Below are positions 21,705-41,365 of a stretch of 64,000 bases of DNA, in pieces. The position numbers and the translations under genes were made by a program. Origin of the DNA: Persicimonas caeni (GTDB lineage Bacteria > Myxococcota_A > Bradymonadia > Bradymonadales > Bradymonadaceae); NCBI RefSeq assembly GCF_006517175.1, contig NZ_CP041186.1, positions 1,453,001 through 1,517,000 of the forward strand, in the 5' to 3' direction. Position 1 is the first letter of the stretch. Every line of letters begins with the position of its first letter. Below the pieces are notes generated by a model. The model made no database searches. It had not been told where the DNA came from and saw only the letters and a list, made by a program, of their open reading frames with translations.

Positions 21705-21944
21705 CGGGTCCCCCTGTGGGAGCGTAGGGTTACAAGTGATGTGCGGCTTTGGCTTTGGCTGTCCGCGTATCGTGCGCGGAGGGGAGGGTGGCGTCAATGG
21801 GGAATGAGGCCGCCCCTCGGCGAGTCCAAATCCCAGCCTTGCCATTTACACCCAACACGCCCTAAACTCACCGACAACTGACAACTCCAGCAAATTTGGG
21901 CGGGGCCCACCCACCTGTAGCTCCAACGAAGTAGGCAGTAACGC

Positions 21945-25397: not shown

Positions 25398-25769
25398 ATG
25401 AAGAAGAATGAACGACTGCTTCGCCTTTACGAGCTATTGTCTGAGGCGGCGGCACAAGAGCGTGAGTTCACAATTCATGAGGCGATTAAACGCATCGGCT
25501 ATAAGAAGTCGACTATCAAGACCTACCTGAGCAAGAAGCTGCATTCCTACGTTAACCAATCGGCTTCGAACTCGGACTCTTACCGCATCGCAGCTCCGCT
25601 TCCGAAGTCCGAAGAGGCATTCTTGAGCCTCATGACTCAGCGTGCCAAAGCTCCTCCAACGAAGGAAGAGAACCTTGCCGCAAGTCTACTGGAACGCAGC
25701 CGTGATGCTTTCACCGGTAACCGACCGGCAGACCTCGTTCTTGAGCACCTGAGCCCCTCCCCAGCATAA
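25398..25769 (+). pseudogene. 5' part of a DUF3644/HEPN-like gene, cut by the IS66-led insertion
   Basis: A helix-turn-helix-like N-terminus (EREFTIHEAIKRIGYKKSTI and KTYLSKKLHSYV, residues 21-52) is followed by a linker and LLERSRDAFT (97-106), the usual entry into the DUF3644 domain. There the native gene ends: bases from 25717 on are the IS66 end, which adds 17 foreign residues before the stop at 25769. AGGAGGG precedes ATG 25398. The missing part continues in frame at 34813 (VAIESYNRPS). The truncated 123-residue product might still bind DNA. Confidence 0.82.
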
Positions 25770-25801
25770 TCTGTGCGTCACTCACGCTAAAGGAGTCACG
25801 C

Positions 25802-26134
25802 ATGGCATCCCCGAAGAGACGCGGCCGCCCATTCTGGTCGTCCCTCGTTCAGAAGTACGAGCAGTCCAGCGACATCACCCAGAAGGAATTCGCCCAGAAG
25901 TACGGTGTACGCACCGACACCTTCCGAAGCTGGCTGTACCGGCTGCGCCGCGAAGAAGCATCCACAGCCGGCCCATCCGCACCTCGATTTATCGAAGTCG
26001 ACACCAGCCAGGTCGACCCATCGCCCCAGCAGGTCACGCTCGAGCTCGGAGAGTTGCGTTTGCATTTGACCGCGCTGCCCGACCCGGGATGGCTGGCTGA
26101 GCTCGCTGCACTCAAGGAGGCGAGCTCATGCTGA
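25802..26134 (+). CDS. tnpA: IS66 TnpA, helix-turn-helix accessory protein
   Basis: 110 residues, the small DNA-binding protein needed for IS66 transposition. The N-terminal helix-turn-helix reads SDITQKEFAQKYGVRTDTF RSWLYRL, typical of the IS66 OrfA / transposase_8-like group. GGAG precedes the ATG. The end overlaps the start of tnpB by seven bases, so translation is coupled. It appears intact. Confidence 0.9.
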   Translation: MASPKRRGRPFWSSLVQKYEQSSDITQKEFAQKYGVRTDTFRSWLYRLRREEASTAGPSAPRFIEVDTSQVDPSPQQVTLELGELRLHLTALPDPGWLAELAALKEASSC

Positions 26135-26493
26135 CCTTACCCAGAGGAGTGCGCATCTATCTCGCCCGCGAGCCGGTCGACATGCGCAAGGGCATCGACG
26201 GTCTGAGCGCTTTGGTTCGCCAGTTCGGCGAAGACGTCTTTTCCGGCCACCTTTTCGTGTTCATCTCCAAGCGAGGCGACAGACTCAAGATTCTGACCTG
26301 GGACACCGGCGGCTTCGTCGTCTTCTACAAGCGTCTGGAGAAGGGCACCTTCAAGCGACCCAAAATCGCTGCGGCCGACGCGACCCTTCGACTCGACGCA
26401 GCCCAGCTCACACTTCTTTTGGAGGGCATCGACTTTAGCCGACTTCGACGCCCGAAATTGTGGCAGCCGCCGGAAACCAGAAATGCGAGCTAA
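26128..26493 (+). CDS. tnpB: IS66 Orf2 accessory protein TnpB
   Basis: 121 residues. The IS66 Orf2 signature is complete: GVRIYLAREPVDMRKGIDGL, FVFISKRGDRLKILTWDTGG and FVVFYKRLEKGTFKRP. Its biochemical role is not settled, but it is required for IS66 transposition. It overlaps tnpA at its start and is followed closely by the transposase gene. Confidence 0.93.
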   Translation: MLTLPRGVRIYLAREPVDMRKGIDGLSALVRQFGEDVFSGHLFVFISKRGDRLKILTWDTGGFVVFYKRLEKGTFKRPKIAAADATLRLDAAQLTLLLEGIDFSRLRRPKLWQPPETRNAS

Positions 26494-26533
26494 GGGATCG
26501 ACATCCGATCACTTCTGTGATCTAACCTGCTCT

Positions 26534-28066
26534 ATGGCCGAGCGGATCGACATCCCGACCCCAGAAGACATCCAGAAGCTCGATGGTGCGAGCGCTCGGG
26601 GTCTTCTGCGTCAGCTCGCCGCGCTCATTGCCACGCTCTACGCGCTCATCGACGACTTGCGCGAGACGATCGCTCGCCAGAGCCATCAGCTCGAGCAGTT
26701 TCAACGGGCGATGTTTGGAAGCTCGTCGGAGCGACTGCCGTCGCTGAAGACCCAGCTTCGAAAGAAGCAAGCGCGCCGGGAGACTGCCGAGCAGAAAAAG
26801 GAGCGGCTGCACAGGGCGCAAAAGCGGCGCGAGAAAAACGCCGAGAAGAAGCGAAAGGCCGCGCGCAAAGAGGTGGTCGAGCATCCCATCGTCGAGCCCA
26901 ATTGCCACGGCTGCGGCCGACACTCCCACCAAGCAAGCCCGCTGGCCGATGCGGTCAGCTACGAATACGAGTACGTGCCGGCGCATTTCGTGCGCCGTGA
27001 GCACCGCCAGCATCGCGCGGTGTGCGAGTGCGGCGAGTTTCTGTACGGCCAAACGCCTCAGCGGGTCTGCGAGGGCGGGATGTACGGGCCGGGGCTGCAC
27101 GCCAACGTGGTGGTGTCCAAGTGTGCCGACAGCCTGCCCATCGAGCGGCAGGCAAAGCGGCTTCGCCGCGTCGGTATCCCGATGAACAAGAGCACGCTTT
27201 TGGACCTGTACCACCGCACCGCCTGGCTGTTGCGGCCGCTGTGGGCCTACTTGGTCGGCGACGTCGCCCAGAGCGCGGACGTCTCGGCCGACGAGACCCC
27301 GATTCGGGTGCAGGCCAAGGGAAAATGCCGGCGCGGATGGATGTGGACGTTTATCGCGGGCAAAAAGATAAGCTACGTTTACAGCCCGTCTCGCGGCGGC
27401 GAAACCCCGGTGCAGGTGCTCGGCGGGACCACCGGCACCCTGCAGGTCGACGGCTACACCGGCTATAACAAGGTGACCTGTCCGAGCGGCCGCGAGCGCG
27501 CCGGCTGCTGGGCACACGTGCGCCGCAAATTCTTCGAAGCGCGCTCCACGGCCCCTGTGGAGGCCGACCACATGATGTCTCAGATTTTGGAGCTCTATGG
27601 GGTGGAGTATCTTGCGGCAGACGAGCCAGTTATCGGAAGTAAGCCACATTTGCTGCTTACGCTGCGCCAGACGAAGAGCACAAAGATAATCGGCGGTATT
27701 TTTGAGTGGCTCGATGTCCAAAAGCCGCTGCATCCGCCCAAGAGCCCGCTGGGCCGCGCCATCAACTACACGCTCAAGCAGCGCGAGGCGCTCAGCGTCT
27801 TTCTGAACAATGCGCAGGTCAGCCTCGACAACAACCTGAGCGAGCGAAACCTGCGGCTCATCGCGCTGGGCCGAAAGAACTTTCTCTTCGTCGGAAATGA
27901 TCAGGCCGGCGAGAACTTGGCCATCCTGCAATCGCTCGTGGCGACCTGCATCGCCAACGACGTCAACCCCCAGGACTACCTGGCCGACGTCTTGATGCGC
28001 ATCCAAGACCATCCTCAGTCAGCCATTTCGGAGCTGATGCCGTACAACTGGGAGCCTCAGGATTGA
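26534..28066 (+). CDS. tnpC: IS66 transposase TnpC
   Basis: DDE transposase of about 510 residues. An N-terminal leucine-rich coiled coil (LIDDLRETIARQSHQLEQF), a basic Lys/Arg linker, and a zinc-binding CHGCG...CECGE pair precede the catalytic core. Candidate acidic residues are D in VSADETPIRV, D in LQVDGYTGY and E in LDNNLSERNLR. The IS66 C-terminal tail (NDVNPQDYLADVL) is present, so the enzyme looks functional. ATG 26534 starts the family similarity; an in-frame ATG at 26483 overlaps the end of tnpB and is possible. Confidence 0.93.
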   Translation: MAERIDIPTPEDIQKLDGASARGLLRQLAALIATLYALIDDLRETIARQSHQLEQFQRAMFGSSSERLPSLKTQLRKKQARRETAEQKKERLHRAQKRREKNAEKKRKAARKEVVEHPIVEPNCHGCGRHSHQASPLADAVSYEYEYVPAHFVRREHRQHRAVCECGEFLYGQTPQRVCEGGMYGPGLHANVVVSKCADSLPIERQAKRLRRVGIPMNKSTLLDLYHRTAWLLRPLWAYLVGDVAQSADVSADETPIRVQAKGKCRRGWMWTFIAGKKISYVYSPSRGGETPVQVLGGTTGTLQVDGYTGYNKVTCPSGRERAGCWAHVRRKFFEARSTAPVEADHMMSQILELYGVEYLAADEPVIGSKPHLLLTLRQTKSTKIIGGIFEWLDVQKPLHPPKSPLGRAINYTLKQREALSVFLNNAQVSLDNNLSERNLRLIALGRKNFLFVGNDQAGENLAILQSLVATCIANDVNPQDYLADVLMRIQDHPQSAISELMPYNWEPQD

Positions 28067-28180
28067 GATGCGGGGCGGGTTTGCGGTAGGGTTGAGCTAT
28101 GCAACGATGTCTGCCAGTCGGTTACCTTGCGACTATGGTTGCATCATCCCGAACTTCTCCGGTGAAAATGAGGATGGGTA

Positions 28181-29230
28181 ATGATTGGAAAGCACTTCAG
28201 TGAGACAGGTCTGCTGCGCGTGCGAATGGGGACGCGCCTCTGGATTCTCCTGATTCTACTGGCGCCTCTCACCGGTGGATGTGGACCAGATGATCCCGAG
28301 ACCTGGGTGACGTACCTGAGTTCCGGCTCGTTCGAACGGTATGACGAGGTTGAGATCCTGCCCATCGGCAGTCAAATTGAGCTGCAGTATTTTCGAGAAG
28401 GTTCCGAAGGGAAGGGGTTTCCTCTGAGACTCGAATGGGTGCGATCGAGTGCACCACACGTGATACGGGTCGTCGAGTATTCTCGCGCGGAACCGCCTTA
28501 CACGCCGACTTTGGGACAAGGAATCATTGTTCTCGAGGCTGTTTCACCTGGAAAGGCGACGATCGAGATGAAAGGGTCCTCCCACTCCGATATTTTTTCG
28601 GGAGGTACATTGTCGATCGAAATAGAGGTCGCCAAACCAGCAAAGCTGACCTTCGTAAAGGGTCGCTGCTTGCAAGGAGATGCCATCCTCCCAGGGCAGC
28701 CCCTGCGTATCGCGTATGACTTGTTCGACGGGCGGGATCGAGCCCTCTACGAGCACGATACTGGACGTTTTTATCGTTTCGAACCGGAAGATGCCGTTGG
28801 AACTGGCGGTTTTGGCTATATGGCTATACGCCCTGCCCACGTCACGGTACGATCTCGCGTAGATGACTCAACCATCGGATTCCAAATTCACCCCGAATCC
28901 AGCATCACCAGCGCATCGCTCGCTGCCACTCGCGATACTGACCGCTTCTTGATTGGCAACTCGAATTATTTAGCCATTACGGCAAACGTATTGGGAAAGA
29001 GTGCGTGCTCCCACATCAATACGAACGTTGTCTCCAACACAGTCACAAACCTAACACCCACCGTCTGCGCGCATGTGAAGGCGTCGGGCAGTCAATTCCG
29101 AGTAGACTTCCAGCAGCCGGGGCAGTGCAAGATCGACTTCGCCTTGCCGAATGCACGGGGTGGTGAGGGGATTACGCTCCGATATGAGGCCGAAGTAGAA
29201 AGCACACACCACGATGGAAATACAAACTGA
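28181..29230 (+). CDS. Lipoprotein of unknown function, first of three
   Basis: 349 residues. The N-terminus has a hydrophobic helix ending LLAPLTGGCGPDD, a lipobox; ATG 28226 (MGTRLWILL) is as likely a start as 28181. The rest is beta-rich with no family I recognise: strands such as LRLEWVRSSAPHVIRVVEYS and ATIEMKGSSHSDIFSGG look like Ig-like repeats, and four later cysteines could form disulfides. Codons are clearly more AT-rich than in the flanking chromosome. It precedes two further lipoprotein genes in the same direction inside the inserted segment. Confidence 0.75.
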   Translation: MIGKHFSETGLLRVRMGTRLWILLILLAPLTGGCGPDDPETWVTYLSSGSFERYDEVEILPIGSQIELQYFREGSEGKGFPLRLEWVRSSAPHVIRVVEYSRAEPPYTPTLGQGIIVLEAVSPGKATIEMKGSSHSDIFSGGTLSIEIEVAKPAKLTFVKGRCLQGDAILPGQPLRIAYDLFDGRDRALYEHDTGRFYRFEPEDAVGTGGFGYMAIRPAHVTVRSRVDDSTIGFQIHPESSITSASLAATRDTDRFLIGNSNYLAITANVLGKSACSHINTNVVSNTVTNLTPTVCAHVKASGSQFRVDFQQPGQCKIDFALPNARGGEGITLRYEAEVESTHHDGNTN

Positions 29231-29257
29231 GACAAGAAATAGGATGCGAGGAACGTA

Positions 29258-30481
29258 ATGACGGAAAACACGAGAAGAGCAATCGCTGTACTATTTCTTG
29301 TCTTTGCAAGTGCGTCCTGCTCGAATTCAGACGGAGAACACCTAAACGTACCTTCTGACGATGATCTCCGTGATTTCGCCGCAACGCGCACCTCTAAGCT
29401 TACGGGATCGGAAGCGCTGGACGACGACGACAATGATGGGGTTAAGAATGAATTCGATGAATGCGCGACCCCTATATTAATCGACGGTCCTTGGGGAGTA
29501 ATCATGCCAAGGGTCGGAGCCAATGGCTGTGAAGAAGCAGCTATGCCACACGTTTGCCGTGGTGACACAGCACCTCCGCGCCATGTATTAGGAAGTCAAG
29601 AGGAAGGCAATTTTATTATGGGCGCGAAGGTTCGACGACGCACTCTAGAAGGTCATACTGTTTTTGAGGTTCGCCTCCCAGGCGGAATGGACGTCGACCT
29701 AGAAGAAAAATGCCCACGATTCACGGGTGGCGTTGTCGGTGTGTTTTCAATTGGGAAGAAGTTTCCAATTTGGACTTGCAAGACGCGAGAGGTCCCACAG
29801 CAGTGGCCGAACGATCCTGGGACTGGCTCATATAATCGACAAGCTCGGATAGACGATCTCAACCCATGTTATTTTGATCCGGCAGCGTTTGGAATTAGTG
29901 AGAGTGAGGTCCAAGATGCTCTGAAGAGCGGGATTCGCGTGTTTCTGAACTTCGTCGCGGAGGATGCTGCGGGGAATACTCTCAGAACTCACATCGGAGA
30001 GGGTACATTGGATTCCAAGACATGTCAGTTGTCGCTCTTGCGAGATAAATATGGAGAGCTAGCAACTACTTCGACCGAATCGTGCTCGTCCTATTGTGAT
30101 AGTCCAGCAGAGATTAAGGTAGCCACCGTCAGCACAGAAGGACCAGATATTGAATCAACAACGGCAGTTCTTCCTCGTCCAACCTTTTCCGTCGTGGTGT
30201 TGGGAGAAATTGCTTATGATTCGGGCTGCGGCTCACCTCAGATGGGGGGGTTCTTGAAAAATCTGACTGTCGCTGGACGAACAGAGGTCTCCCCTGATGA
30301 GCAAGTGTACTGCAAGAGCGAAATCAACGGAACAAAATTTGAGGTGCGCTGTGACGTGAGGGTGCGCAACCTCGTTGTTAAGCACGATGTCCAAGAGCGG
30401 ATTCTTGGAGATTTAAATGTCTATCTCCGAGTTGGAGACACGGCCAGAACAGTGCCACTTTCTTTTGATCAGGTTCTGTAA
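29258..30481 (+). CDS. Cysteine-rich lipoprotein with a calcium-type Asp loop
   Basis: 407 residues. The signal ends LVFASASCSN, a lipobox. Residues around 55-68 (LDDDDNDGVKNEFDEC) form a thrombospondin type-3-like calcium loop, common in myxobacterial and bradymonad surface lipoproteins. About fourteen cysteines in the rest suggest several disulfides, so it is extracellular. I do not recognise the remaining domain. Its stop overlaps the next gene by one base (TAATG), so the two are coupled. AT-rich codons indicate transfer. Confidence 0.75.
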   Translation: MTENTRRAIAVLFLVFASASCSNSDGEHLNVPSDDDLRDFAATRTSKLTGSEALDDDDNDGVKNEFDECATPILIDGPWGVIMPRVGANGCEEAAMPHVCRGDTAPPRHVLGSQEEGNFIMGAKVRRRTLEGHTVFEVRLPGGMDVDLEEKCPRFTGGVVGVFSIGKKFPIWTCKTREVPQQWPNDPGTGSYNRQARIDDLNPCYFDPAAFGISESEVQDALKSGIRVFLNFVAEDAAGNTLRTHIGEGTLDSKTCQLSLLRDKYGELATTSTESCSSYCDSPAEIKVATVSTEGPDIESTTAVLPRPTFSVVVLGEIAYDSGCGSPQMGGFLKNLTVAGRTEVSPDEQVYCKSEINGTKFEVRCDVRVRNLVVKHDVQERILGDLNVYLRVGDTARTVPLSFDQVL

Positions 30482-31773
30482 TGCATCGAACTAAGAGCAG
30501 GATGTCGTACACTTCGACACTCGGGCAGTGGGGAGTGGCCTTCTTCTCTCTGATTCAAGTGGTAATTGCCTTAACTACAAGCGTTGGCTGCAGTGACGCC
30601 AATAGCCCGATGTCGCGCGATGGTGGATTCGAGACCGATGCGAAGGCCCAACCGGATGATACGTGGCAAATTCCGGATCCTTTTGCCGAAGTAGACAGAG
30701 CCCCACTTGACGAGGACTTACATGAACGAAAGCGTTTTCTGGGGGCTGTAGCCTCTTCCGGGAGTCACGCATTTGCTGTCTCTGTTTCGCTGGAAGACCG
30801 GGTAGACTATCGGCTACTGGTCTATGACATTGACGGCGATTCTCCTAGACTTGTTGGCAAGGCGCTCACCTCCAATCAACCCACAGACATCGTGGTTGCT
30901 GATGGCCTCGCATATCTTGTGACCAATGCCACAGGGATAGATGAACCCTCGCTCATCATTTACGATGTTACAAACCCTGCGGAGCCTCGCTGGTATGGAA
31001 AAGCTAGTCTATCGGGTATTGACCCATCGGGTAACGACTGCTTAGACGAACGTTCGTCACCCGAACTGCACCTCCAGGTGCTTGAAGAGCATGCTTACAT
31101 CGGGTGTAGTTTCGGAATTGCTGTGGTTGACATCTCTGAGCCGAGCGAGCCCGAAGTTTCCGACGTGGTGTCAATGCCAGCACACGTGCTTCGGCTTGGC
31201 GCCTTTTTGCGCGAGTGGGATGGCAGAGCACAACACTTGGTGTTACCGCTGTTGAATGGCAATAGCGAGGTGCCGGTTTATCTTGTGAATGATGGGGAGT
31301 TGCGCGAGATGGCCCCTCCGCTCACGTTGGATTTCGAGCTGTCATCAGGTACTCGGCTGGCCACACACATACCACCTACGCTAGGACAGATAGACTATAG
31401 CCACGTCAATGTAGCCTTTTCGGGCCGAGGAGGTGCACTGGCGTTGAGTGAAGTGGTGGCGTACTCAAGCGACGACAAATACACCCCAGAATCTTATACC
31501 GCGACCGATTTGTCGTTTACGGGACTGCTGAGTGCAGTAGCTGTCGAAGAGGACCAAGTTTACGTTGCCACAGAACCTGGCGGTACCCTCACGGTGCCGA
31601 CCGTACACCGAGTGTCTTTCTCGGCATTGCGAGATCCGACGGTTGAGGGAGAGGTTGAGCTGGAGCAGTTAAAGACGATCTACGATCTTGTCGTTTCCGC
31701 GGATCGAATAATTATCGCCGCCGAAGCTCAGAGCGGGGATGGACTTTCCTTGATTCCCGTGGATGCGTTGTAA
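30481..31773 (+). CDS. Beta-propeller-like (LVIVD-type) lipoprotein
   Basis: 430 residues. A hydrophobic signal ends LTTSVGCSDA, a lipobox. The mature part contains phrases of the LVIVD repeat kind, each ending in a strand such as LLVYDIDGDSPRLVGKA, LIIYDVTNPAEPRWYGKA and IAVVDISEPSEPEVSDV, then weaker ones further on; this predicts a surface beta-propeller. Family members occur in bacterial surface proteins of unknown role. It ends the three-gene lipoprotein set carried by the inserted segment, perhaps for adhesion or predation, which is guesswork. Confidence 0.78.
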   Translation: MHRTKSRMSYTSTLGQWGVAFFSLIQVVIALTTSVGCSDANSPMSRDGGFETDAKAQPDDTWQIPDPFAEVDRAPLDEDLHERKRFLGAVASSGSHAFAVSVSLEDRVDYRLLVYDIDGDSPRLVGKALTSNQPTDIVVADGLAYLVTNATGIDEPSLIIYDVTNPAEPRWYGKASLSGIDPSGNDCLDERSSPELHLQVLEEHAYIGCSFGIAVVDISEPSEPEVSDVVSMPAHVLRLGAFLREWDGRAQHLVLPLLNGNSEVPVYLVNDGELREMAPPLTLDFELSSGTRLATHIPPTLGQIDYSHVNVAFSGRGGALALSEVVAYSSDDKYTPESYTATDLSFTGLLSAVAVEEDQVYVATEPGGTLTVPTVHRVSFSALRDPTVEGEVELEQLKTIYDLVVSADRIIIAAEAQSGDGLSLIPVDAL

Positions 31774-31904
31774 TCTCTCAGCGCATTTCGGTGTATTGGG
31801 CAGTATAGGTTTGTGAGTTTGTGGCGAAGCCTCAATCTTGGTGTTGTCACAGCGAACAAGCCGCTAGAGAAGCCGGGGTTTGTTCGGCCCCGGCTTCGCT
31901 GCAT

Positions 31905-32291
31905 CTAGAACGGAATGTCGTCGCCATCGAACTCCGGTACATCGTCGGAGTCGACGGCCGGGGCGTCGTCCTTCTTGTCGAGAAACTCGACCGACTTTGC
32001 GAGGACCTGGACGTCACGACGGTTGTTGCCGTCCTCATCTTGCCAGGAATTCGTTTGAAGCTCGCCTTGGATCGCTACATGCGAGCCTTTGGAAAGATAC
32101 TCGAGGCAGTTTTCGGCGAGGGGACCGAAAGCTACAACGCGGTGCCAGTCAGTTCGCTCCTTTCGTTCGCCGTCTTTGTCAGACCAACGCTTGTTCGTGG
32201 CGACGGACAGTCGGCACAACAGGGTGCCGCTATCGAGCTTCTTCGCTTCAGGGTTGGCTCCGAGATGACCAGTCAACATCGCTACATTCAT
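31905..32291 (-). CDS. ssb: Single-stranded DNA-binding protein
   Basis: 128 residues; coats single-stranded DNA. The OB fold is seen as MLTGHLGANPEAKKLDSGTL, DWHRVVAFGPLAENCLEYL and KGSHVAIQGELQTNSW. The C-terminus keeps the acidic tip DDIPF that docks SSB partner proteins. ATG 32291 has GGAG seven bases before it. Within the inserted segment it precedes nothing else on this strand; with ardC and trbB it points to a conjugative plasmid, where SSB protects the transferred strand. Confidence 0.93.
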   Translation of the reverse strand: MNVAMLTGHLGANPEAKKLDSGTLLCRLSVATNKRWSDKDGERKERTDWHRVVAFGPLAENCLEYLSKGSHVAIQGELQTNSWQDEDGNNRRDVQVLAKSVEFLDKKDDAPAVDSDDVPEFDGDDIPF

Positions 32292-32357
32292 CGTTCTGCT
32301 CCATAGGCAGAGGGTTGTGGTGAATGCCCGCCGGCCCATGCCGGCGGGCGGTTTGGC

Positions 32358-33230
32358 TCACGCTGCGTCCTGCTCCTGAGCAGGTTGCAGGTCCGAGAGA
32401 AACTCGGCCGCGTCCTGAGCCTTGCGAGACGCGGTGAAAATCGCGTGTTTGTCTTCTTTGAGAATCCGAATCCAGCTTTTGAGGTAGCGCGCGGGGTCTT
32501 TGAGGTCGGCTTCCAGGCCGAGCTCCGCCGAGAGGAACGCGCTTGTCAGTTCAGCCACGAGCTCCTCGGCGGCGTACTTGTCGTCACCGAAGCGACCGGA
32601 CATGTCGCGGTCGAGGCGGGTGGGGTGACCCGTCCAGTGACCGAGCTCGTGAAGCAGGGTGGTGTAGTAGGCTTCGGGCGACTCGAAGTGGCCGAAATCA
32701 GGCATGGTCACTCGGTCTTTCGCGGGGGAGTAAGCCGCGTGTGGCGAACCTTCTTCGATGCGTGCGCCGGTGTTTTTCACGAAGGCTTCCGCCTGCCCAA
32801 TCCTTTCTTCTTCGCTCAACTGGTGAGCCGGGATGTCCAGCGGCTCGAGGCCGTCAATCTGGTCGCGGTTAAAGACAGTCGAAGTTTTGAGGAAACGGAT
32901 CGTTCGCTCTTCTTCTTCGCCGTCGTCGGTCTCGATGGTCTTCTTGAACTTGCCCAGGTAGCAGATTTTGACTCCGGACTCGCCTTTGCGGACCTGGCCA
33001 CCTTCTTTCTGCGCCTGGCGGTAGGTGTACCACTCGTTGGTCGAGTAACCGTTTACGAGTGCGGTGCCCCAGAGCGTCAGGACATTGACGCCGCGGTAGT
33101 TGTTGCCGGTGCGGCCGTTTCGAGGAATGCCAGCCGAGGTGGACCAGGGTTGGTGCCAGTCGCCCGCGTCGACTTTCTCGAAGAGGTCGACGATTTGGTC
33201 AGTAATAAGTTGGTGTTTGTCCTGTGCCAT
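32358..33230 (-). CDS. ArdC-like antirestriction protein, zincin domain
   Basis: 290 residues. N-terminal ArdC ssDNA-binding domain (QPWSTSAGIPRNGRTGNNYRG, split by one residue from VNVLTLWGTA), then a metallopeptidase domain with HELGHWTGH (194-202) and a downstream glutamate in AAEELVAEL. ArdC proteins protect incoming plasmid DNA from restriction on entry. ATG 33230 (MAQDKHQLITDQIVDLF) is chosen; sequence further upstream is not conserved. It sits beside ssb and trbB. It is notable that an antirestriction gene has landed inside a restriction locus. Confidence 0.88.
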   Translation of the reverse strand: MAQDKHQLITDQIVDLFEKVDAGDWHQPWSTSAGIPRNGRTGNNYRGVNVLTLWGTALVNGYSTNEWYTYRQAQKEGGQVRKGESGVKICYLGKFKKTIETDDGEEEERTIRFLKTSTVFNRDQIDGLEPLDIPAHQLSEEERIGQAEAFVKNTGARIEEGSPHAAYSPAKDRVTMPDFGHFESPEAYYTTLLHELGHWTGHPTRLDRDMSGRFGDDKYAAEELVAELTSAFLSAELGLEADLKDPARYLKSWIRILKEDKHAIFTASRKAQDAAEFLSDLQPAQEQDAA

Positions 33231-33447
33231 CGGTGTGTTCCTTGCGCCAAATGAAAAGCTGGCTCGTTGAGACCAGCCGGATGTAAGCGTGTCTGCTCGC
33301 CCTTGAGCTGCCTTGTGGGCGGGCCCTTCACCCTTGCGAGGGCCGCACGCGAGGGAGCGGGGGCGATGCAGACGAAAAGCGTGTCCGGCGATGGTCGTGC
33401 GATGCCAATCAGCTCTGGCGCTGGAACGGTGTGCGATGGAGGACAAC

Positions 33448-34386
33448 TCACACCTCCTGAAGCTGATACTCTTGACCGTCATGGCACATGACGCGGGCGA
33501 CGGTCTTCACCTCCCGGCCGGTAGCGGTGCCCTCGATGTAGACAACGAGGTTGACTGCCTCGGCGATCAGTTGCACAGGAGCCCTGGGGATAGCTTCCTC
33601 GATGAGACTCTCGAGCCGAGTGAGCCCCCTCAACGCGCTGTTGGCGTGGATGGTGGCACAGCCCCCATTGTGTCCGGTGTTCCATGCCTTCAAGAGATCG
33701 AGAGCCGACGCGTCGCGCACCTCACCGACGACGATCCGATCCGGCCTGCTACGAAGACTGTCTTTGACCGCCTTTTGCCAGGTAAAGCCGCTGTCCCGGT
33801 CGATGTAAAACGCGATGTGATTGGGCGCGGTGCACTGAAGTTCCGGCGTATCCTCAATGGTGAGCACGCGGTCTTCGGTCCCCGAAATGACCTGCAGAAT
33901 AGCGTTCGCCAGCGTCGTCTTTCCCGAGCCGGTGCCCCCAACGATGAGGACGTTCTGACGGTCGACCACCGCTTCATAGATGGCCTTGGCCTGCTCGTAA
34001 GACATGTAGCCGTCGTCTACGTAGTCCTGCAGGCTGAACACGCGGGTTGCGCGCTGGCGGATGACAAACATGGGTGCCGGCACCACGGGAGGCACAAACC
34101 CCTGGAAGCGCGCGCCGGATTCGGGGAGCACAGCAGCAAGGGAGGGCTTTTGTCGGTTGCACACCTCGTCGGCCGACGATGCGACGATGTTGATGATGGA
34201 TTCGACTTCCGCAGAGCGGACGCGAACGCCCGAGTCAACCATGCCGACGCTAAACTTCTCGACCCAGACCCTGCCGTCTGGATTCGCCATAACCTCGGTG
34301 ATGAGCTCGTCGTTGAGCAGTTGCCACAGCTCGGGTCCGCAACTGTGCTCGAGCATGTTCATGAGGCGGTCTTGTTTTTCCGACAT
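33448..34386 (-). CDS. trbB: TrbB/VirB11-family conjugation ATPase
   Basis: About 312-residue hexameric ATPase that powers a type IV secretion pump at the inner membrane. Motifs in order: Walker A GGTGSGKTT, Asp box LTIEDTPEL, Walker B RIVVGEVRD, and the His box CATIHANSA. The N-terminal domain (ELWQLLNDELITEVMANPDG) and the length fit TrbB. ATG 34386 follows GGAG; an in-frame ATG at 34404 is less likely. No other trb genes are present, so this is a lone survivor of a transfer operon within the inserted segment. Confidence 0.92.
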   Translation of the reverse strand: MSEKQDRLMNMLEHSCGPELWQLLNDELITEVMANPDGRVWVEKFSVGMVDSGVRVRSAEVESIINIVASSADEVCNRQKPSLAAVLPESGARFQGFVPPVVPAPMFVIRQRATRVFSLQDYVDDGYMSYEQAKAIYEAVVDRQNVLIVGGTGSGKTTLANAILQVISGTEDRVLTIEDTPELQCTAPNHIAFYIDRDSGFTWQKAVKDSLRSRPDRIVVGEVRDASALDLLKAWNTGHNGGCATIHANSALRGLTRLESLIEEAIPRAPVQLIAEAVNLVVYIEGTATGREVKTVARVMCHDGQEYQLQEV

Positions 34387-34442
34387 CAGAAGCTCCGTGA
34401 TCACAAATCGAAAAATAGATAAGTATACAAATAGCCAAATAG

Positions 34443-34811
34443 TCAGTCGTCGAAGACGAACTTGACCTTGCCCTCGTCGCCAAGCGTCAGCCTGGTGGAG
34501 AAGGACTTTCCGGCCTTGGACTTAAAGCCTTTGAGTTTGCGGGTGGTTTTCCCCTCGAGGAGCTGAGTGGCGACCGACGTCGTGATGCGCTTTCCGGCAA
34601 TCTTCTTGAAGATGACGAAAGCGCAGTCGCGCCCCGTTCTGCAGTAGTACGCCTTCTTACCCTCGAGGACGTCGGCACCACACAGCGGGCAGGTGCCCAG
34701 GGTCTCAGGCCCAGCGGACGGCAAGTCGACCGAGCGAGTGATGATGTTTCCAACGACCTCGCGGGTGAGCTTGCGCACCTGCCCCATGAAGGCGCCGCGC
34801 TCAAGCTTCAC
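34443..34811 (-). pseudogene. topB: topB 3' fragment (type IA topoisomerase III C-terminus)
   Basis: About 120 residues corresponding to the C-terminus of plasmid-type TopB: FMGQVRKLTREVV, a zinc-finger-like CPLCGADVLEGKKAYYC, then FVIFKKIAGKRITTS, LLEGKTTRKLKGFKSKAGK and the last strand GKVKFVF. All catalytic domains are missing because the reading frame runs into DUF3644 sequence at about 34806, the right end of the inserted segment. The first residues (VKLERG) may come from the junction. It shows the donor was broken inside topB. Confidence 0.82.
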
Positions 34812-34812
34812 C

Positions 34813-35703
34813 GTGGCAATTGAGTCCTACAACCGGCCCTCACTCCATAACCGCGTCGAAGTTTTCACGATCCTCATCACGAACGCTTGGGAGTTACTGC
34901 TAAAGGCGGAAATCATCAAAGCGTCCGACAACATAGACGCCATTTTTTACAAGGACTCAGACCGGTCGCTTGCAATTCGAGATGCGCTGAAGCAACGAAT
35001 TCCCAAGGAAAATGATCCGGTGCGGAAAAACCTCGAAAAGGTGTGTGACCTGCGCGATAATGCAGTGCATCTGCTGATTCCAGAGCTTCAGGCGCATTGG
35101 TCACGTCTGTTTCAGGCCAATGTTCTCAACTTCATTACACGCTACGAAGATGCCACCGGAGAGAATCTCTTCAACAGCGGTCGTGGCATGCTCAGCCTCA
35201 TCGTGGACCGAGAAGCAGCCGAGCTAGCCACGATCAAGCTGAAGTTTGGAGAAGCATCTGCCGAAACAGTTGAATTATTCTTGCAGCGGTTTCTCGCAGA
35301 CGAGGAAGAACTTGATACGCCGAACTTTGCGATTCCGGTCGACTATCGGCTGGTGCTCACGAAGGCCAATCAGCAGGGAGATATAGTGCTGTCGCACGGT
35401 GAGGGTGGCCGACGTGCGATAAAGGTTGTCCAATCGAGAAACATCGATAAGACGCACCCGCATCTGATGATGGAAGCAGTCGAATTGATCGGTGAGCGTC
35501 TGCCCGAGCACCACGTTACCAGACCTCGTGTGACGGCAATTTGCGAGAAGCATCACATCTATAACTCACCGGGTTCGAAATACTACGACGAGATTCAAAA
35601 GCCGTTCACAAGACGCTTCTCTGACACATTTGTTGATTGGGTTGTGGAGAAGGCGAGTGAGGATACTGAGTGGATTGAGCGTGCGTGGGACTGGTACTCG
35701 TGA
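34813..35703 (+). pseudogene. 3' part of the DUF3644/HEPN-like gene, severed from its 5' end
   Basis: 296 residues starting VAIESYNRPSLHNRVEVF and ITNAWELLLKAEII, the hallmark of DUF3644. An R-x4-H motif, RDNAVH (residues 81-86 of this part), matches the HEPN RNase active site pattern. GTG 34813 or ATG 34786 (inside topB antisense sequence) could start translation, so a truncated protein without the N-terminal helix-turn-helix may still be made. Its 5' part is at 25398-25715. The reverse transcriptase gene follows after 172 bases on the same strand, so the two were probably one operon. Confidence 0.82.
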
Positions 35704-35875
35704 AATCGGACGTCTTTTGGCTGAACGACAATGCGATACCGCGGGAACAGTGAGGCCTTCTCGGACGAAAATAGCGTCTGTCAGGTCGCCAACGGCTACC
35801 AAAAGCCGCATATGGCTGGCTACGAGCGAGAGTTTCTATCATCAAATCATGCTCTTTCGAGCAAGGGAGTCTTGA
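35704..35875 (+). other. Gap between DUF3644 and reverse transcriptase genes, possible ncRNA
   Basis: 172 bases with no open frame of note on the plus strand. A small hairpin, CGGCTACCAAAAGCCG (about 35799-35814), and several short self-complementary stretches are visible. Several defence RTs (for example DRT2 and DRT9) use a structured RNA encoded beside the RT as template, so this is the first place to look; nothing in the sequence proves it. A ribosome binding site (AAGGGA) lies at its end. Confidence 0.35.
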
Positions 35876-37525
35876 GTGTCGAGACGCGCTCCAACATTAG
35901 ATTCATTGCTTCGTTCGGGGTACTTTCCAAAAGAACTTCCTCCTGCGTTTACGACCGCCCCCTTCGCGAATGCTTTTGCTGAGAAAGACATCGACGAAGA
36001 GTTCTTTGGCATTACGAACGCCAGTGACCCAAATGCGGTCGCCAATCGTTTCAAAGGAGCTTCTGCGACCCGTCCCGCACAGCACTTTTTGGCGCTGCGG
36101 AACGGTGGCCGACGACGACTTGAAGTTCCGAACCCCGCAAGCTTCTATTGGCTTGCGAAAGAAATAAGTGCAGGATGGCACGAGCTATGGGCGAAGATCG
36201 GTCGATCTCAACTGTCGATTTCTGCGCCGCAAGTAAACGATGATTCTAGCCGTGCGGTTACCCCACAGTCTCCTGGTAATAAGCGTCCAGAAATTCGCGC
36301 GCAGCGTTTTTGCTACGGGACAATACTGTTTGAGTGCGACATAGCGTCCTACTACCCGTCGATCTATACCCATTCCATTCCTTGGGTTCTACATGGGAAA
36401 GAAAAGGCGAAGTCCAACAAGAATGGGCTGAAACTGTTGGGTAATCGGCTGGACAAGTTGTGCCAGAACTGTCAGCGCCGGCAAACTCGGGGGATTCCAG
36501 TCGGGCCAGACACCTCACTAATTATCAGCGAGTTGCTTCTTTCAGAAGTGGACGTGCGACTGTCTGAATTAGACGAATTACGGGGAGGAATGCGCTTTTA
36601 TGATGACTTCGAGTTGGTGTGCGAGACTGACGATGATGCTAACTTACTTAGGAGTTCGATTGAAGATGCACTGGAGTGGCTAGAGCTTGAGGTGAACAAT
36701 CGGAAGTGCCGGATTGAACGTCTTCCTGTTGAGTTGGATCCTCCCTGGCGGCGAGAGCTACGACGGTGGGAAGCAAAAAAACGTTCTGGACCCTCGATTC
36801 GAGGAGTAAACAAGCTGAACCCGCAAGAGTTACTAGATTTTTGGGATACCACAACAGCTCTTCAGGGCGACGCCCCGCATGATCCAGTGATTAAAGAAGC
36901 GATCGTAAGGCTCAGTCTGCGCGACGGATTGGCAGTACGACCGAGCCGAAGATATCAAAAGTTTTTGGCGTCGGCGCTCCGGCTTCAACCGGCCTTGGCT
37001 AGACCTGCGTTCACGGAATTGCTGCGGATCAAGAAACATGGGTGCCTCGACGCCGATCTCCTCAACGACGTGCTCTCACATCGAGTAAAGCGATTCGCAC
37101 AAACGCGGGCAACGAATGAGGTGGCTTGGAGTGTATGGGGCGCACTCGCGTTGGATGTCTCACTTGGAGAAGAATGTGGCCAGATTCTTGCGGATGTAGA
37201 TGATGCTTTTGTTGCTCTCTTGTCGTTGATAGCTCGGGAAAAAGGGCTGATTACGGGGCTTGGACGCATCGAGCGATGGAAGTCGTGGTGCACGGCGGAA
37301 TCGCTCAAGGATGAAAATTGGCTTGGATGCTATCAAATTGCTAAGAGTGGCCTTATTGATGGGGTCGACAACAGTATTCTTGAATCTCAACACTATTCGT
37401 CTCAGCTGAGAGCCGCCGATGTGGATTTTGTTGATATTGACGACTTCGACGACATAGATGCGCTGATTGCGAAACTGAATTTGAAAAGATTGGCTCGAGA
37501 GCTCGATGGCGGAGGGCAGTCCTGA
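35876..37525 (+). CDS. Reverse transcriptase of the UG/Abi/DRT defence type
   Basis: 549 residues. N-terminal LLRSGYFPKELPPAF phrase, then RT fingers and palm: motif A FECDIASYYPSIYTHSI (catalytic D155), motif B RQTRGIPVGPDTSLIISE (203-219), motif C RFYDDF (D243, D244) and a motif D-like LELEVNNRKCRIERLP. The YYPSIYTHS and GIPVGPDTS forms are typical of Abi-like and UG reverse transcriptases, not of group II introns. Residues about 290-549 form a helical C-terminal domain, as in that clade. The start is GTG 35876 with AAGGGA before it. Codons are AT-rich. The exact class cannot be assigned by eye. Confidence 0.9.
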   Translation: MSRRAPTLDSLLRSGYFPKELPPAFTTAPFANAFAEKDIDEEFFGITNASDPNAVANRFKGASATRPAQHFLALRNGGRRRLEVPNPASFYWLAKEISAGWHELWAKIGRSQLSISAPQVNDDSSRAVTPQSPGNKRPEIRAQRFCYGTILFECDIASYYPSIYTHSIPWVLHGKEKAKSNKNGLKLLGNRLDKLCQNCQRRQTRGIPVGPDTSLIISELLLSEVDVRLSELDELRGGMRFYDDFELVCETDDDANLLRSSIEDALEWLELEVNNRKCRIERLPVELDPPWRRELRRWEAKKRSGPSIRGVNKLNPQELLDFWDTTTALQGDAPHDPVIKEAIVRLSLRDGLAVRPSRRYQKFLASALRLQPALARPAFTELLRIKKHGCLDADLLNDVLSHRVKRFAQTRATNEVAWSVWGALALDVSLGEECGQILADVDDAFVALLSLIAREKGLITGLGRIERWKSWCTAESLKDENWLGCYQIAKSGLIDGVDNSILESQHYSSQLRAADVDFVDIDDFDDIDALIAKLNLKRLARELDGGGQS

Positions 37526-37850: not shown

Positions 37851-39038
37851 ATGGATGATGGTAAGGGGTTGATACGGAAGGTGTTTCGGCAACGTGCCGA
37901 GGTTGTGAAGATTGTGCTGGTCGCAGTGTTGCTGAGTATCGGCGTGAATTTGATTGCTCAATTTACTTGGGATTGGGCAAAACCTCACAAACAAGCGATG
38001 TTAGTGGTGGGGCTGTTTCTTTGCGTTTTGGCTGTCGCGATTCTTGCCGTGAACCTTTTTTCGAAGATTACAAAGGTAAGGAGCGTCTTCGAAGGCATTT
38101 TCGTTTACGATGAGAAGTCCGACGCTTTCGTGAGTGTTGACCGATACTGGTTTTCTCACGAGATTTGCCGCTATTATGATGCGGCAATTGCCGAGGATTT
38201 AGCGCTAAAAGCTCGCTGGGAAAATTGCCGCTTTGAGTTATTTGGCAAGCGCAATGACATGTTTGTGGAATTGGCGACTTACGCTCTTCTTAACCAACTG
38301 TCGGTGCATCTTTCTGACTACTTTAATGATACGAGCTTTGAGGATGAGTCGCTCGAGGTTTTTCAGCGCGACGATCTCACCAAGGACGTTTTGAAGAATG
38401 AATTTCTAGCGCTATTCTCGAAGCCGATGGAGAAGCGAGCACCGTTTGTTAAACAGACCCTTGCTGAGAAAGATACGGGTCCGGGAGAGGTTATTGCGTC
38501 ATTTAGTGACGGCGCAATTTATGAAAAATTTAGGTTGGTTCTGCCAAAGGGAAGTCGTCTCACACTGCGGGATGACGGTGCGATTTGTGTCAAAACAAGA
38601 CGATTAGATTTGGTTTTAGGGGTCCGGTTTATTGGCACCCAGTCGTTGTTGCCAAGTGAATTTCAAAGGCTCTATCTTGGTGTGGAGCAACCTATTCACC
38701 ACAGCGTTTACGAGGTAGACGTGTCAATCGAAGCCTCTTTTCGTTTATTGCCGCTACTCGCGAAGAAGGGCTGGCGTTACTACTTCTGGTTAGAGTCATT
38801 TTTTGAGGATATTAGGTCGAAGGTGTCACGAGAACACTTTCTGAAGTCTATCGGCTGGCAGACAGCGTATACCACCTACCGACTCATGAACCCAGAGACA
38901 AGAAACGACCAGCGGGAGTCTTGTACTAGTGACCAAGAGGAAAAGCCGGGCAAGGCCGAGACTGACACTAGCACGGGATCTGACATAGACTCCGCTGAGC
39001 GAAAAAGGTCGCCCGACTCAAATGACGGCTGCGAATAA
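37851..39038 (+). CDS. Two-helix membrane protein of unknown function in the defence island
   Basis: 395 residues from ATG 37851. Two transmembrane helices near the N-terminus (VVKIVLVAVLLSIGVNLIAQ, about 19-38; AMLVVGLFLCVLAVAILAV, about 49-67) are followed by a cytosolic domain of about 240 residues and a disordered, Glu/Ser-rich tail. I do not recognise the family. The layout (two helices plus a globular domain) recalls membrane effectors of abortive systems, but no motif proves this. Strongly AT-rich codons. It stands alone between two 54-bp direct repeats, downstream of the RT. Confidence 0.7.
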   Translation: MDDGKGLIRKVFRQRAEVVKIVLVAVLLSIGVNLIAQFTWDWAKPHKQAMLVVGLFLCVLAVAILAVNLFSKITKVRSVFEGIFVYDEKSDAFVSVDRYWFSHEICRYYDAAIAEDLALKARWENCRFELFGKRNDMFVELATYALLNQLSVHLSDYFNDTSFEDESLEVFQRDDLTKDVLKNEFLALFSKPMEKRAPFVKQTLAEKDTGPGEVIASFSDGAIYEKFRLVLPKGSRLTLRDDGAICVKTRRLDLVLGVRFIGTQSLLPSEFQRLYLGVEQPIHHSVYEVDVSIEASFRLLPLLAKKGWRYYFWLESFFEDIRSKVSREHFLKSIGWQTAYTTYRLMNPETRNDQRESCTSDQEEKPGKAETDTSTGSDIDSAERKRSPDSNDGCE

Positions 39039-39472: not shown

Positions 39473-41365
39473 ATGACCGCTTTCGACCCCACACCCTACC
39501 TGACCCAAGACGAGGGGCAGCATTACGAGCGCAAACCGCTCTTCGAGGGGCGTCCCGGGGCGAAGAAGGCGCGTGACCGCCGGGAGGTGCGCGACCAGGT
39601 CGCGGAGTACGTCGCGGCGTTTGCCAACGCGGAGGGCGGCATCTTGCTGCTCGGAGTCGAGGACGACTGTGTGGTCACGGGCCACGACTACAGCGAGCGT
39701 CCGCTCGAGCATGTGCTCAACGTGCCGCAGGCGCGGTTGGAGCCGCCGCAGGCGCCGGGGTTTGTGGTGGAGCACGATGGCCATGAAGTGATCGTCTTCG
39801 ACGTGCAGGCGTCGGACGTGCCGGTGCAGGTGACCGGTGATGGGTTTCCGCTGCGCATGGGCGATCGGACGGTGCAGGCGAGCGAGTCGCAGATTCGCAG
39901 CCTCAAGTTTCATGGCATGGCGGAGAGCTGGGAGAGCAGGCCCTCCCCGTTGACCTTGGATGACCTGGACGGGGAGTTGCTCGCGCGAGCGAAGGCCGGG
40001 TCGGGGCTGCAGTCGGCGTCGGACGTCGACTATCTGTTGCGGCGCAAGTTGGCCGATCGGCGCGGGGCTGGGATTCAGTTGCGGCGGGCGGCGGAGCTCG
40101 TCTTCGCTCAATACGGACCGGACCATCCGAATGCGGGCGTTCGCTTGTTTCGGGTCATCGGCACCGAGCGGCGCCTGGGGCCCGAACATAACGTCGAAGA
40201 ACGGCCGCGCATCGAGGGCAATCTGCCCGCGGTGTTGGACGAGGCGATGACGCTTATAAATGGGCTGTTGCGGCGTCCATCGCGGCTGGTCGGCTCCAAG
40301 TTCAAGGCCATGCCGGAGTACCCCGACTTTGCGTGGAAGGAAGCGTTGCTCAACGCGGTCGCTCACCGCGACTACGCGGCGCAGGGCCGCTGTACGGAAG
40401 TGTGGCTGTATGATGACCGCATGGAGGTGCGCAATCCGGGTGCGCTGATGGAGACCGTGTCGCTCGAAGGCCTGCGACGCCAGGAGCGGTTTCACGCCAG
40501 CCGAAATCCTCGCTTGGTTCGGGTGCTCGTCGACCTCGGGTATATGCGCGACCACGGGGAGGGCATCCCGCGGATGTTCTACGAGATGGAAGGGAGCTTT
40601 TTGCCCGAGCCGGAGCTCGACGAGACGACCCACTCCTTTGCAGTCACGCTGCGCAACACGCCGGAGTTGAGCGAGGCTGACCGCCGTTTTATCGCGCGAG
40701 TCGATAGCGACGAATTGTCGAAGGAGGAGTTTCGCGCTCTGTTGGAGGCACACCGGCATGGGCGGGTTGATAACGCGCGGATGCGACGCCTTGTCGGCTT
40801 AGATACGCTGAAGGCGAGCCAGCTGTTGAGGCGGCTTCGCGATCAGGGATTGCTCGAGCTTCATGCAGCCGGATCTGCAAGTTATTACACGCTCGGTGAG
40901 TCTCTTTCGGTCGAACGAGAGACTTCGGAGGCCGAACAGAAGACTTCGGAGGTCGAACGAGAGACTTCGGAGGTCGAACGAGAGACTTCGGAGGCTGAAC
41001 AGAAGACTTCGGAGGCCGAACAGAAGACTTCGGAGGCCGAACAGAAGACTTCGGAGGCCGAACAGAAGACTTTGCTCCGCGAGCAACTCTTGCGCATGCT
41101 TCCAGAAGAGTTACGAGTTCAGGTCGAGTCTGTGCGGTCACGCGCCCCGGTTGAGCAGATGCAATCGCTGGTCAGAGATCTGTGTGAGTTGCGGGCGCTG
41201 CGTCCGTTGGAGCTCGCGGCCCTCCTAGATCGCGGCACGAGTCGGGTAACCTCCGCATATTTGAGGCCTCTCGTTGACGCCGGCAAACTCGAACGCACGC
41301 ATCCGGAAACACCGCACCACCCTGATCAAGCTTATGTCGCTGTAAATGAGAACTCTGGGGGATAG
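39473..41365 (+). CDS. AlbA_2 (Schlafen-like) ATP-binding protein with heptad repeat tract
   Basis: 630 residues. The N-terminal AlbA_2 / AAA_4 domain reads YVAAFANAEGGILLLGVEDD (residues about 42-61). A C-terminal ATP-binding module has FAWKEALLNAVAHRDYAAQG and DHGEGIPRMFYEME. Winged-helix-like segments follow, one interrupted by seven tandem copies of a seven-residue unit (ERETSEA / EQKTSEA; DNA 40913-41059). Such proteins are common between hsdS and hsdR and are thought to act with the restriction system, though their function is not settled. The hsdR start lies two bases after its stop. Confidence 0.88.
   Translation: MTAFDPTPYLTQDEGQHYERKPLFEGRPGAKKARDRREVRDQVAEYVAAFANAEGGILLLGVEDDCVVTGHDYSERPLEHVLNVPQARLEPPQAPGFVVEHDGHEVIVFDVQASDVPVQVTGDGFPLRMGDRTVQASESQIRSLKFHGMAESWESRPSPLTLDDLDGELLARAKAGSGLQSASDVDYLLRRKLADRRGAGIQLRRAAELVFAQYGPDHPNAGVRLFRVIGTERRLGPEHNVEERPRIEGNLPAVLDEAMTLINGLLRRPSRLVGSKFKAMPEYPDFAWKEALLNAVAHRDYAAQGRCTEVWLYDDRMEVRNPGALMETVSLEGLRRQERFHASRNPRLVRVLVDLGYMRDHGEGIPRMFYEMEGSFLPEPELDETTHSFAVTLRNTPELSEADRRFIARVDSDELSKEEFRALLEAHRHGRVDNARMRRLVGLDTLKASQLLRRLRDQGLLELHAAGSASYYTLGESLSVERETSEAEQKTSEVERETSEVERETSEAEQKTSEAEQKTSEAEQKTSEAEQKTLLREQLLRMLPEELRVQVESVRSRAPVEQMQSLVRDLCELRALRPLELAALLDRGTSRVTSAYLRPLVDAGKLERTHPETPHHPDQAYVAVNENSGG
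40913..41071 (+). repeat. 21-bp in-frame tandem repeat, seven units plus a partial
   Basis: Units begin GAACGAGAGACTTCGGAGG or GAACAGAAGACTTCGGAGG and run at exact 21-bp spacing from 40913 to 41059, then a partial unit. They encode ERETSEA/V and EQKTSEA/V. Near-identity of the last four units suggests recent expansion; copy number changes would leave the frame open and alter a linker length. Confidence 0.95.

What the first reader, a model, noticed from the sequence alone, without database searches (positions are those of the whole stretch)
34813..37525. Candidate defence system: HEPN-like DUF3644 protein with a UG/Abi-type reverse transcriptase
The RT (35876-37525) has Abi/UG motifs (YYPSIYTHS, GIPVGPDTS, FYDDF) and a helical C-terminal domain. 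It follows the DUF3644 gene on the same strand and sits inside a type I restriction locus. I do not know a described system that pairs a helix-turn-helix/DUF3644 protein with such an RT. A plausible scheme is RT-made cDNA controlling a HEPN RNase toxin. In this strain the toxin gene is broken while the RT is whole.
Basis: partly seen in the sequence, partly recalled or inferred. Interest (0 to 1): 0.9.

Follow-up and report, generated by a model that had tools for sequence, protein, structure and literature searches.

The report
Two separate defence genes, chance neighbours
An intact, rather divergent antiviral reverse transcriptase (DRT6 type) sits next to the tail half of a separate defence gene (DUF3644) that a jumping element has cut in two; both are cargo of a decaying type I restriction locus, and across other genomes they are almost never found together, so this is not a new paired system.

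Summary
Window 35876-37525 encodes an intact 549-aa reverse transcriptase, and DUF3644 lies just upstream on the same strand inside a type I restriction locus. The RT is a divergent member of the known single-gene system DRT6: best PADLOC model Drt6 (1.3e-129), and its predicted structure best matches the DRT6 cryo-EM hexamer (9wy8, TM 0.91). DUF3644 has the HEPN motifs Rx4H and Ex3K. It is not merely truncated: its missing N-terminal HTH half lies 9 kb upstream (25398-25715), split off by a 9.1-kb insert carrying IS66 and a conjugative-element fragment. The proposed RT-HEPN system is not supported. Only 1 of 87 related RT loci (Arsukibacterium MJ3) has an adjacent DUF3644, in reversed order. 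None of 42 DUF3644 loci sampled without regard to RT has an RT. Each gene occurs alone as cargo in type I RM loci: a relative with closely similar hsd genes carries intact DUF3644 without RT, and Thalassotalea carries hsdM-hsdS-RT-x-AlbA-hsdR without DUF3644. Best explanation: two autonomous defence modules sharing a cargo site. The locus is decaying (hsdM frameshifted, DUF3644 interrupted). Ordinary, apart from a divergent DRT6 and a clear case of RM-embedded cargo.

The parts
35876..37525 (+). Intact DRT6-like (UG/Abi) reverse transcriptase, 549 aa; palm motifs with D155 and YDD 242-244; helical C-terminal domain
   Evidence: PADLOC Drt6 1.3e-129; AF2 model pLDDT 89.6; Foldseek best hit 9wy8 hexameric DRT6, E 1.7e-27, TMt 0.91
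34806..35703 (+). 3' part of the DUF3644 gene: HEPN domain with E-x3-K and R-x4-H motifs, and the C-terminal domain
   Evidence: PF12358 1.2e-40; PDC-S19 8.1e-70; E27, K31, R81, H86 of P0002 invariant in 15 homologs
25398..25715 (+). 5' part of the same DUF3644 gene: N-terminal HTH-like region, separated by the insert
   Evidence: matches own DUF3644 HMM positions 7-111, 1.5e-12; blastp to N-termini of intact homologs
25717..34805 (.). 9.1-kb insert interrupting DUF3644, with a 7-of-8 base target duplication
   Evidence: TTTCACCG at 25709-25716 and CTTCACCG at 34806-34813
25717..28125 (+). IS66-family element, 2409 bp, at the left end of the insert
   Evidence: inverted repeats; IS66 Orf2 and transposase domains; two further identical copies in the genome with perfect 8-bp duplications
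32358..33482 (-). ArdC-type anti-restriction protein, on the insert
   Evidence: PF08401 1.2e-34, PF18818 1.7e-49
33448..34404 (-). Type II/IV secretion ATPase (VirB11/TrbB-like), on the insert
   Evidence: PF00437 1e-38
34443..34805 (-). Truncated topoisomerase C-terminal fragment at the right end of the insert
   Evidence: PF13342 1.1e-19; only copy in the genome
21930..23956 (+). hsdM, type I methyltransferase; frameshifted (reads in two frames, switch near 22230)
   Evidence: N6_Mtase 2.5e-61; intact 685-aa homolog from a related genome aligns in two frames
24000..25299 (+). hsdS, type I specificity subunit (start approximate)
   Evidence: PF01420 5.4e-19
37854..39038 (+). Uncharacterised protein with a hydrophobic N-terminal region (probably two membrane helices, by inspection); further cargo gene
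   Evidence: no Pfam or PADLOC family; 31% identical homolog in L051 7239-8354 near an RT
39473..41365 (+). Schlafen/AlbA_2 plus HATPase_c_4 protein, a recurrent companion of type I RM
   Evidence: PF04326, PF13749; also present in L059 and L054
41368..44334 (+). hsdR, type I restriction subunit
   Evidence: HSDR_N, SWI2_SNF2, ResIII

Best explanation
Two autonomous defence genes happen to be neighbours because both use the same cargo site inside a type I restriction-modification operon. The RT is a divergent, probably functional DRT6-type enzyme. By analogy with DRT4 and DRT6 it would form a hexamer and make DNA without an RNA partner gene, causing abortive infection when a phage DNA-binding protein stabilises the product. 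DUF3644 is an independent HTH-HEPN protein, probably an abortive-infection RNase. In this genome it is a pseudogene, cut by a 9.1-kb insert led by IS66, and hsdM is frameshifted, so the locus is decaying and the RT is a surviving piece. Shown here: gene identities, the split, the frameshift, and the lack of conserved pairing. Inferred: biochemical activities and independence of function.
For: RT class: Drt6 model 1.3e-129 over residues 7-523, Drt4 next; closest solved structure DRT6 9wy8 by sequence (1.2e-40) and fold (E 1.7e-27, TMt 0.91). DRT6 is described as single-gene and DRT4-related, activated by phage ORF55 (PMC13213688, PMC13314766). No conserved pairing: 1 of 87 RT loci has DUF3644 (L049), 0 of 42 DUF3644 loci have an RT. 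L049's sister RT locus L037 shares the upstream hsd genes but has another gene in place of DUF3644. Separate carriage in type I RM loci: L118, whose HsdM (6.5e-240) and HsdR (E 0) are close to the window's, has intact DUF3644 right after hsdR and no RT; L116 and L125 have DUF3644 between hsdM and hsdR without RT; L059 has hsdM-hsdS-RT-x-AlbA-hsdR without DUF3644. L049's closest DUF3644 (64% identical) lies beside a retron in another genome, and others stand alone next to valS or near an integrase. Split gene and hsdM frameshift.
Against: The two genes do sit next to each other twice, here and 20 bp apart in L049, which a functional link would also explain. DUF3644 also lies beside a retron RT in L151. 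Sampling was limited: many flanks are cut by contig ends, and the RT scan kept only the best 80 of 214 loci. Independence of function was not tested biochemically.
Confidence: 0.88

Rival explanations
1. A true two-gene system: the RT product (cDNA or template-free DNA) holds the HEPN RNase in check or activates it, as in retron toxin-antitoxin systems.
For: Adjacent on the same strand here and in L049, 20 bp apart there. DUF3644 also lies beside a retron in L151. HEPN catalytic motifs are intact in the surviving part.
Against: 1 of 87 RT loci and 0 of 42 DUF3644 loci are paired. Gene order is reversed between the two cases, and the two RTs are on distant branches. In the window the RT stays intact while DUF3644 is disrupted. 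DRT6 is described as single-gene.
Confidence: 0.05
2. A facultative add-on: DUF3644 works alone but is now and then recruited next to RTs (DRT6, retrons) as an extra abortive-infection layer, with selection for the combination though no molecular coupling.
For: Three RT-DUF3644 adjacencies with different RT types or orders (window, L049, L151).
Against: No RT in 42 DUF3644 loci sampled without regard to RT. The adjacencies came from genomes chosen because they hold an RT, and general clustering of defence genes explains them equally well.
Confidence: 0.07

Closest known systems
DRT6 (UG12 from memory; PADLOC PDLC03748; PDB 9wy8)
   Same: Full-length match over residues 7-523; same RT plus C-terminal helical domain fold (TMt 0.91); catalytic Asp residues kept; no second gene needed.
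   Different: Long branch in the RT tree (1.41 changes per site), 24% identical to 9wy8 in the structural alignment and at most about 34-37% to other relatives; embedded in a type I RM operon.
DRT4 (UG15; PDB 9vdo, 9l9s)
   Same: Second-best family (3.7e-110) and fold (TMt 0.77-0.83); single-gene system.
   Different: Scores 211 bits against NCBIfam's Drt4 cut-off of 450, so not filed there.
DUF3644 / PADLOC PDC-S19 (HEPN superfamily)
   Same: PF12358 well above cut-off; Rx4H and Ex3K motifs; HTH-like N-terminus as in intact relatives; occurrence in R-M loci, as noted by Anantharaman 2013 (PMC3710099) for an overlapping family.
   Different: Interrupted in this genome, so not functional as it stands.
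Retrons and AbiA (RT with HEPN or toxin partner)
   Same: They combine an RT with a toxin or HEPN part.
   Different: Here HEPN is a separate gene with no conserved linkage, and the RT is neither a retron RT nor AbiA (best fold DRT6; AbiA is far behind at TM about 0.4).

Membership tests
DRT6 reverse transcriptase | Full-length match to the DRT6 profile, better than to other UG/DRT classes | tested here: met
   Drt6 431 bits vs Drt4 367, UG30 154, AbiK 135
DRT6 reverse transcriptase | RT catalytic residues present | tested here: met
   D155 and D243 invariant, D244 at least 90% in 32 sequences
DRT6 reverse transcriptase | RT domain plus C-terminal helical-repeat domain, fold of DRT6 | tested here: met
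   Model pLDDT 89.6; best match 9wy8 hexameric DRT6, TMq 0.82, TMt 0.91
DRT6 reverse transcriptase | Single-gene system without partner gene or ncRNA | tested here: inconclusive
   No conserved DUF3644 partner; no Rfam hit in the window, but an undescribed ncRNA cannot be excluded
DRT6 reverse transcriptase | Hexamer, DNA synthesis, phage defence | not testable with these tools
   needs experiment
DRT4 | NCBIfam equivalog score above cut-off | tested here: not met
   211 bits vs cut-off 450
DUF3644 (PF12358) HEPN protein | Pfam gathering score | tested here: met
   139.5 vs 27.6 bits
DUF3644 (PF12358) HEPN protein | HEPN Rx4-6H motif and upstream Ex3[KR] | tested here: met
   R81-x4-H86 and E27-x3-K31 invariant in 15 sequences; motif definition from PMC3710099
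DUF3644 (PF12358) HEPN protein | HEPN fold | tested here: inconclusive
   Model pLDDT 69; only weak matches, among them the HEPN/HepT-type chains 5yep and 7bxo, all E above 1
DUF3644 (PF12358) HEPN protein | Intact gene in this genome | tested here: not met
   split by 9.1-kb insert
Type I restriction-modification locus | hsdM, hsdS and hsdR present and intact | tested here: not met
   all three present, but hsdM is frameshifted
Proposed RT-DUF3644 two-gene system | Conserved adjacency across relatives | tested here: not met
   1 of 87 RT loci; 0 of 42 DUF3644 loci

The most novel reading that the evidence does not exclude
A DRT6-type RT and an HTH-HEPN (DUF3644) RNase are functionally coupled in at least some genomes (here before the insertion, and in Arsukibacterium MJ3), the RT's DNA product regulating the RNase, giving a retron-like toxin control built on a DRT.
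Probability: 0.05. Interest if true: 0.65.

Novelty: new member of a known kind. Interest (0 to 1): 0.2.

Why it matters
It removes a tempting but unsupported candidate for a new RT-toxin system, and it shows why such candidates arise: type I restriction operons have cargo sites that collect unrelated defence genes (DRT6, DUF3644, GmrSD, AlbA), so adjacency there is weak evidence of joint function. The RT itself is a divergent DRT6 that could widen the known sequence range of that class.

Tried and rejected
RT-DUF3644 as a conserved module: rejected by counts in both directions. A merely truncated DUF3644: rejected, since the N-terminal half was found 9 kb upstream. A plain IS66 insertion: rejected, because the IS lacks its right-hand target duplication and 6.7 kb of conjugative-element DNA follows it; the near-duplicate lies at 34806-34813. 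DRT4 membership: rejected on score. An Rfam-described ncRNA partner: no hit. Phages and plasmids: only distant RT hits (best about 29% identity in rhizobial plasmids, beside an AAA ATPase and a helicase, no DUF3644). HEPN fold by structure: model too weak to decide. The DRT4 paper of Wang et al. and the UG/Abi survey of Mestre et al. are not in the library, so their content is cited only through reviews.

Full report
Observation. The ORF at 35876-37525 (+) is open and encodes 549 residues with the quoted motifs. DUF3644 ends at 35703 on the same strand, 172 bp upstream. Pfam identifies DUF3644 (1.2e-40) and PADLOC its candidate family PDC-S19 (8.1e-70). The surroundings are a type I restriction locus: hsdM (to 23956), hsdS (to 25299), then after the genes in question an uncharacterised protein, an AlbA/HATPase protein and hsdR (41368-44334).

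The broken gene. A profile built from DUF3644 proteins matched not only 34806-35703 (profile positions 108-411) but also a small ORF 9 kb upstream, 25398-25715 (positions 7-111, E=1.5e-12). This is the N-terminal HTH-like half. So the gene is split rather than truncated. The insert, 25717-34805, begins with a 2409-bp IS66 element. The genome holds two more identical copies of it, each with perfect 8-bp duplications. The window copy has TTTCACCG on its left, no duplicate directly on its right, and CTTCACCG (7 of 8 bases) where DUF3644 resumes at 34806-34813. The other 6.7 kb carries ArdC, a VirB11/TrbB-like ATPase and a cut topoisomerase end, that is, part of a conjugative element. hsdM is also broken: an intact 685-residue relative aligns to the window in two frames, switching near 22230.

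What the RT is. The best PADLOC family is Drt6 (1.3e-129, 431 bits), then Drt4 (367 bits). The NCBIfam Drt4 cut-off is not reached. A model from 32 aligned sequences has pLDDT 89.6, and its best match in the PDB is the hexameric DRT6 structure 9wy8 (E 1.7e-27, TMt 0.91), followed by DRT4/UG15 and AbiK. Catalytic Asp residues are conserved. In a tree of 83 homologs the window RT is a long branch, not close to any single relative. [quoted passage not shown]).

What DUF3644 is. The family was placed in the HEPN superfamily by Anantharaman and colleagues, who noted R-M operon contexts for an overlapping family (PMC3710099). In 15 homologs E27-x3-K31 and R81-x4-H86 are invariant, the motifs they define. 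The structural model was too weak to confirm the fold.

Is the pair a system? Of 87 loci encoding RT relatives in genome and viral collections, one (L049, Arsukibacterium sp. MJ3) has DUF3644 beside the RT, 20 bp downstream, the reverse of the window's order. Its RT is far from the window's in the tree, and its sister locus L037 keeps the same upstream hsdR-hsdM-hsdS genes but has another gene in place of DUF3644. In the other direction, 42 DUF3644 loci found without regard to RTs (16 from the window's phylum, 16 viral contigs, 10 from Pseudomonadota and cyanobacterial sets) contain no RT. The DUF3644 closest to the L049 copy lies next to a retron at glmS in another genome, and further ones stand alone.

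Why they meet here. Each gene is found on its own in type I restriction operons. L118, from the window's phylum and with very close HsdM and HsdR, carries an intact DUF3644 directly after hsdR, plus GmrSD, and no RT. L116 and L125 have DUF3644 between hsdM and hsdR. L059 (Thalassotalea) has hsdM-hsdS-RT-DUF4268 protein-AlbA-hsdR, the RT in the window's position, and no DUF3644. About 8 of 87 RT loci and 5 to 6 of 42 DUF3644 loci have hsd genes nearby. Shared use of such cargo sites explains the adjacency without functional coupling.

Limits. Flanks are often cut by contig ends; the RT scan returned the best 80 of 214 loci; genome sampling covered four sets. A rare, local coupling cannot be excluded (about 5%). 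Biochemical statements about the RT and DUF3644 are inferences from relatives. UG12 as the older name of DRT6 is from memory.

Verdict. Observation confirmed; identity of both genes as defence genes supported; new paired system not supported. A divergent DRT6 in a decaying restriction locus: a new member of a known kind, interest 0.2.

Noticed in passing
window 25717-34805: The insert has IS66 at one end only, yet a 7-of-8 base target duplication flanks the whole 9.1 kb; it looks like a one-ended transposition that took along part of a conjugative element (ArdC, VirB11/TrbB-like ATPase, cut topoisomerase).
   Followed up: partly
window 21930-23956: hsdM is frameshifted near 22230; an intact homolog (about 65% identical) exists in a related genome (L179), so the restriction system is probably inactive here (or the assembly has an error).
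   Followed up: yes
window 37854-39038: Uncharacterised protein with a hydrophobic N-terminal region between the RT and the AlbA gene, with a 31% identical homolog three genes upstream of an RT in Neptuniibacter (L051 7239-8354); no family in Pfam or PADLOC.
   Followed up: partly
L151 8923-12261: A DUF3644 gene directly downstream of a retron RT (type I-A/II-A-like) and its NDT_II-A-like effector gene, next to glmS and glmU.
   Followed up: partly
window 28181-31773: Three consecutive hypothetical genes on the insert (349, 407 and 430 aa; the last with one LVIVD repeat) without PADLOC or PHROG families.
   Followed up: no
L009 / L011 / L067: Rhizobial DRT6 homologs follow an AAA ATPase and a helicase gene, 16 bp before the RT, nearly identical in plasmids and a chromosome; this gene trio may be worth a separate look.
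   Followed up: no
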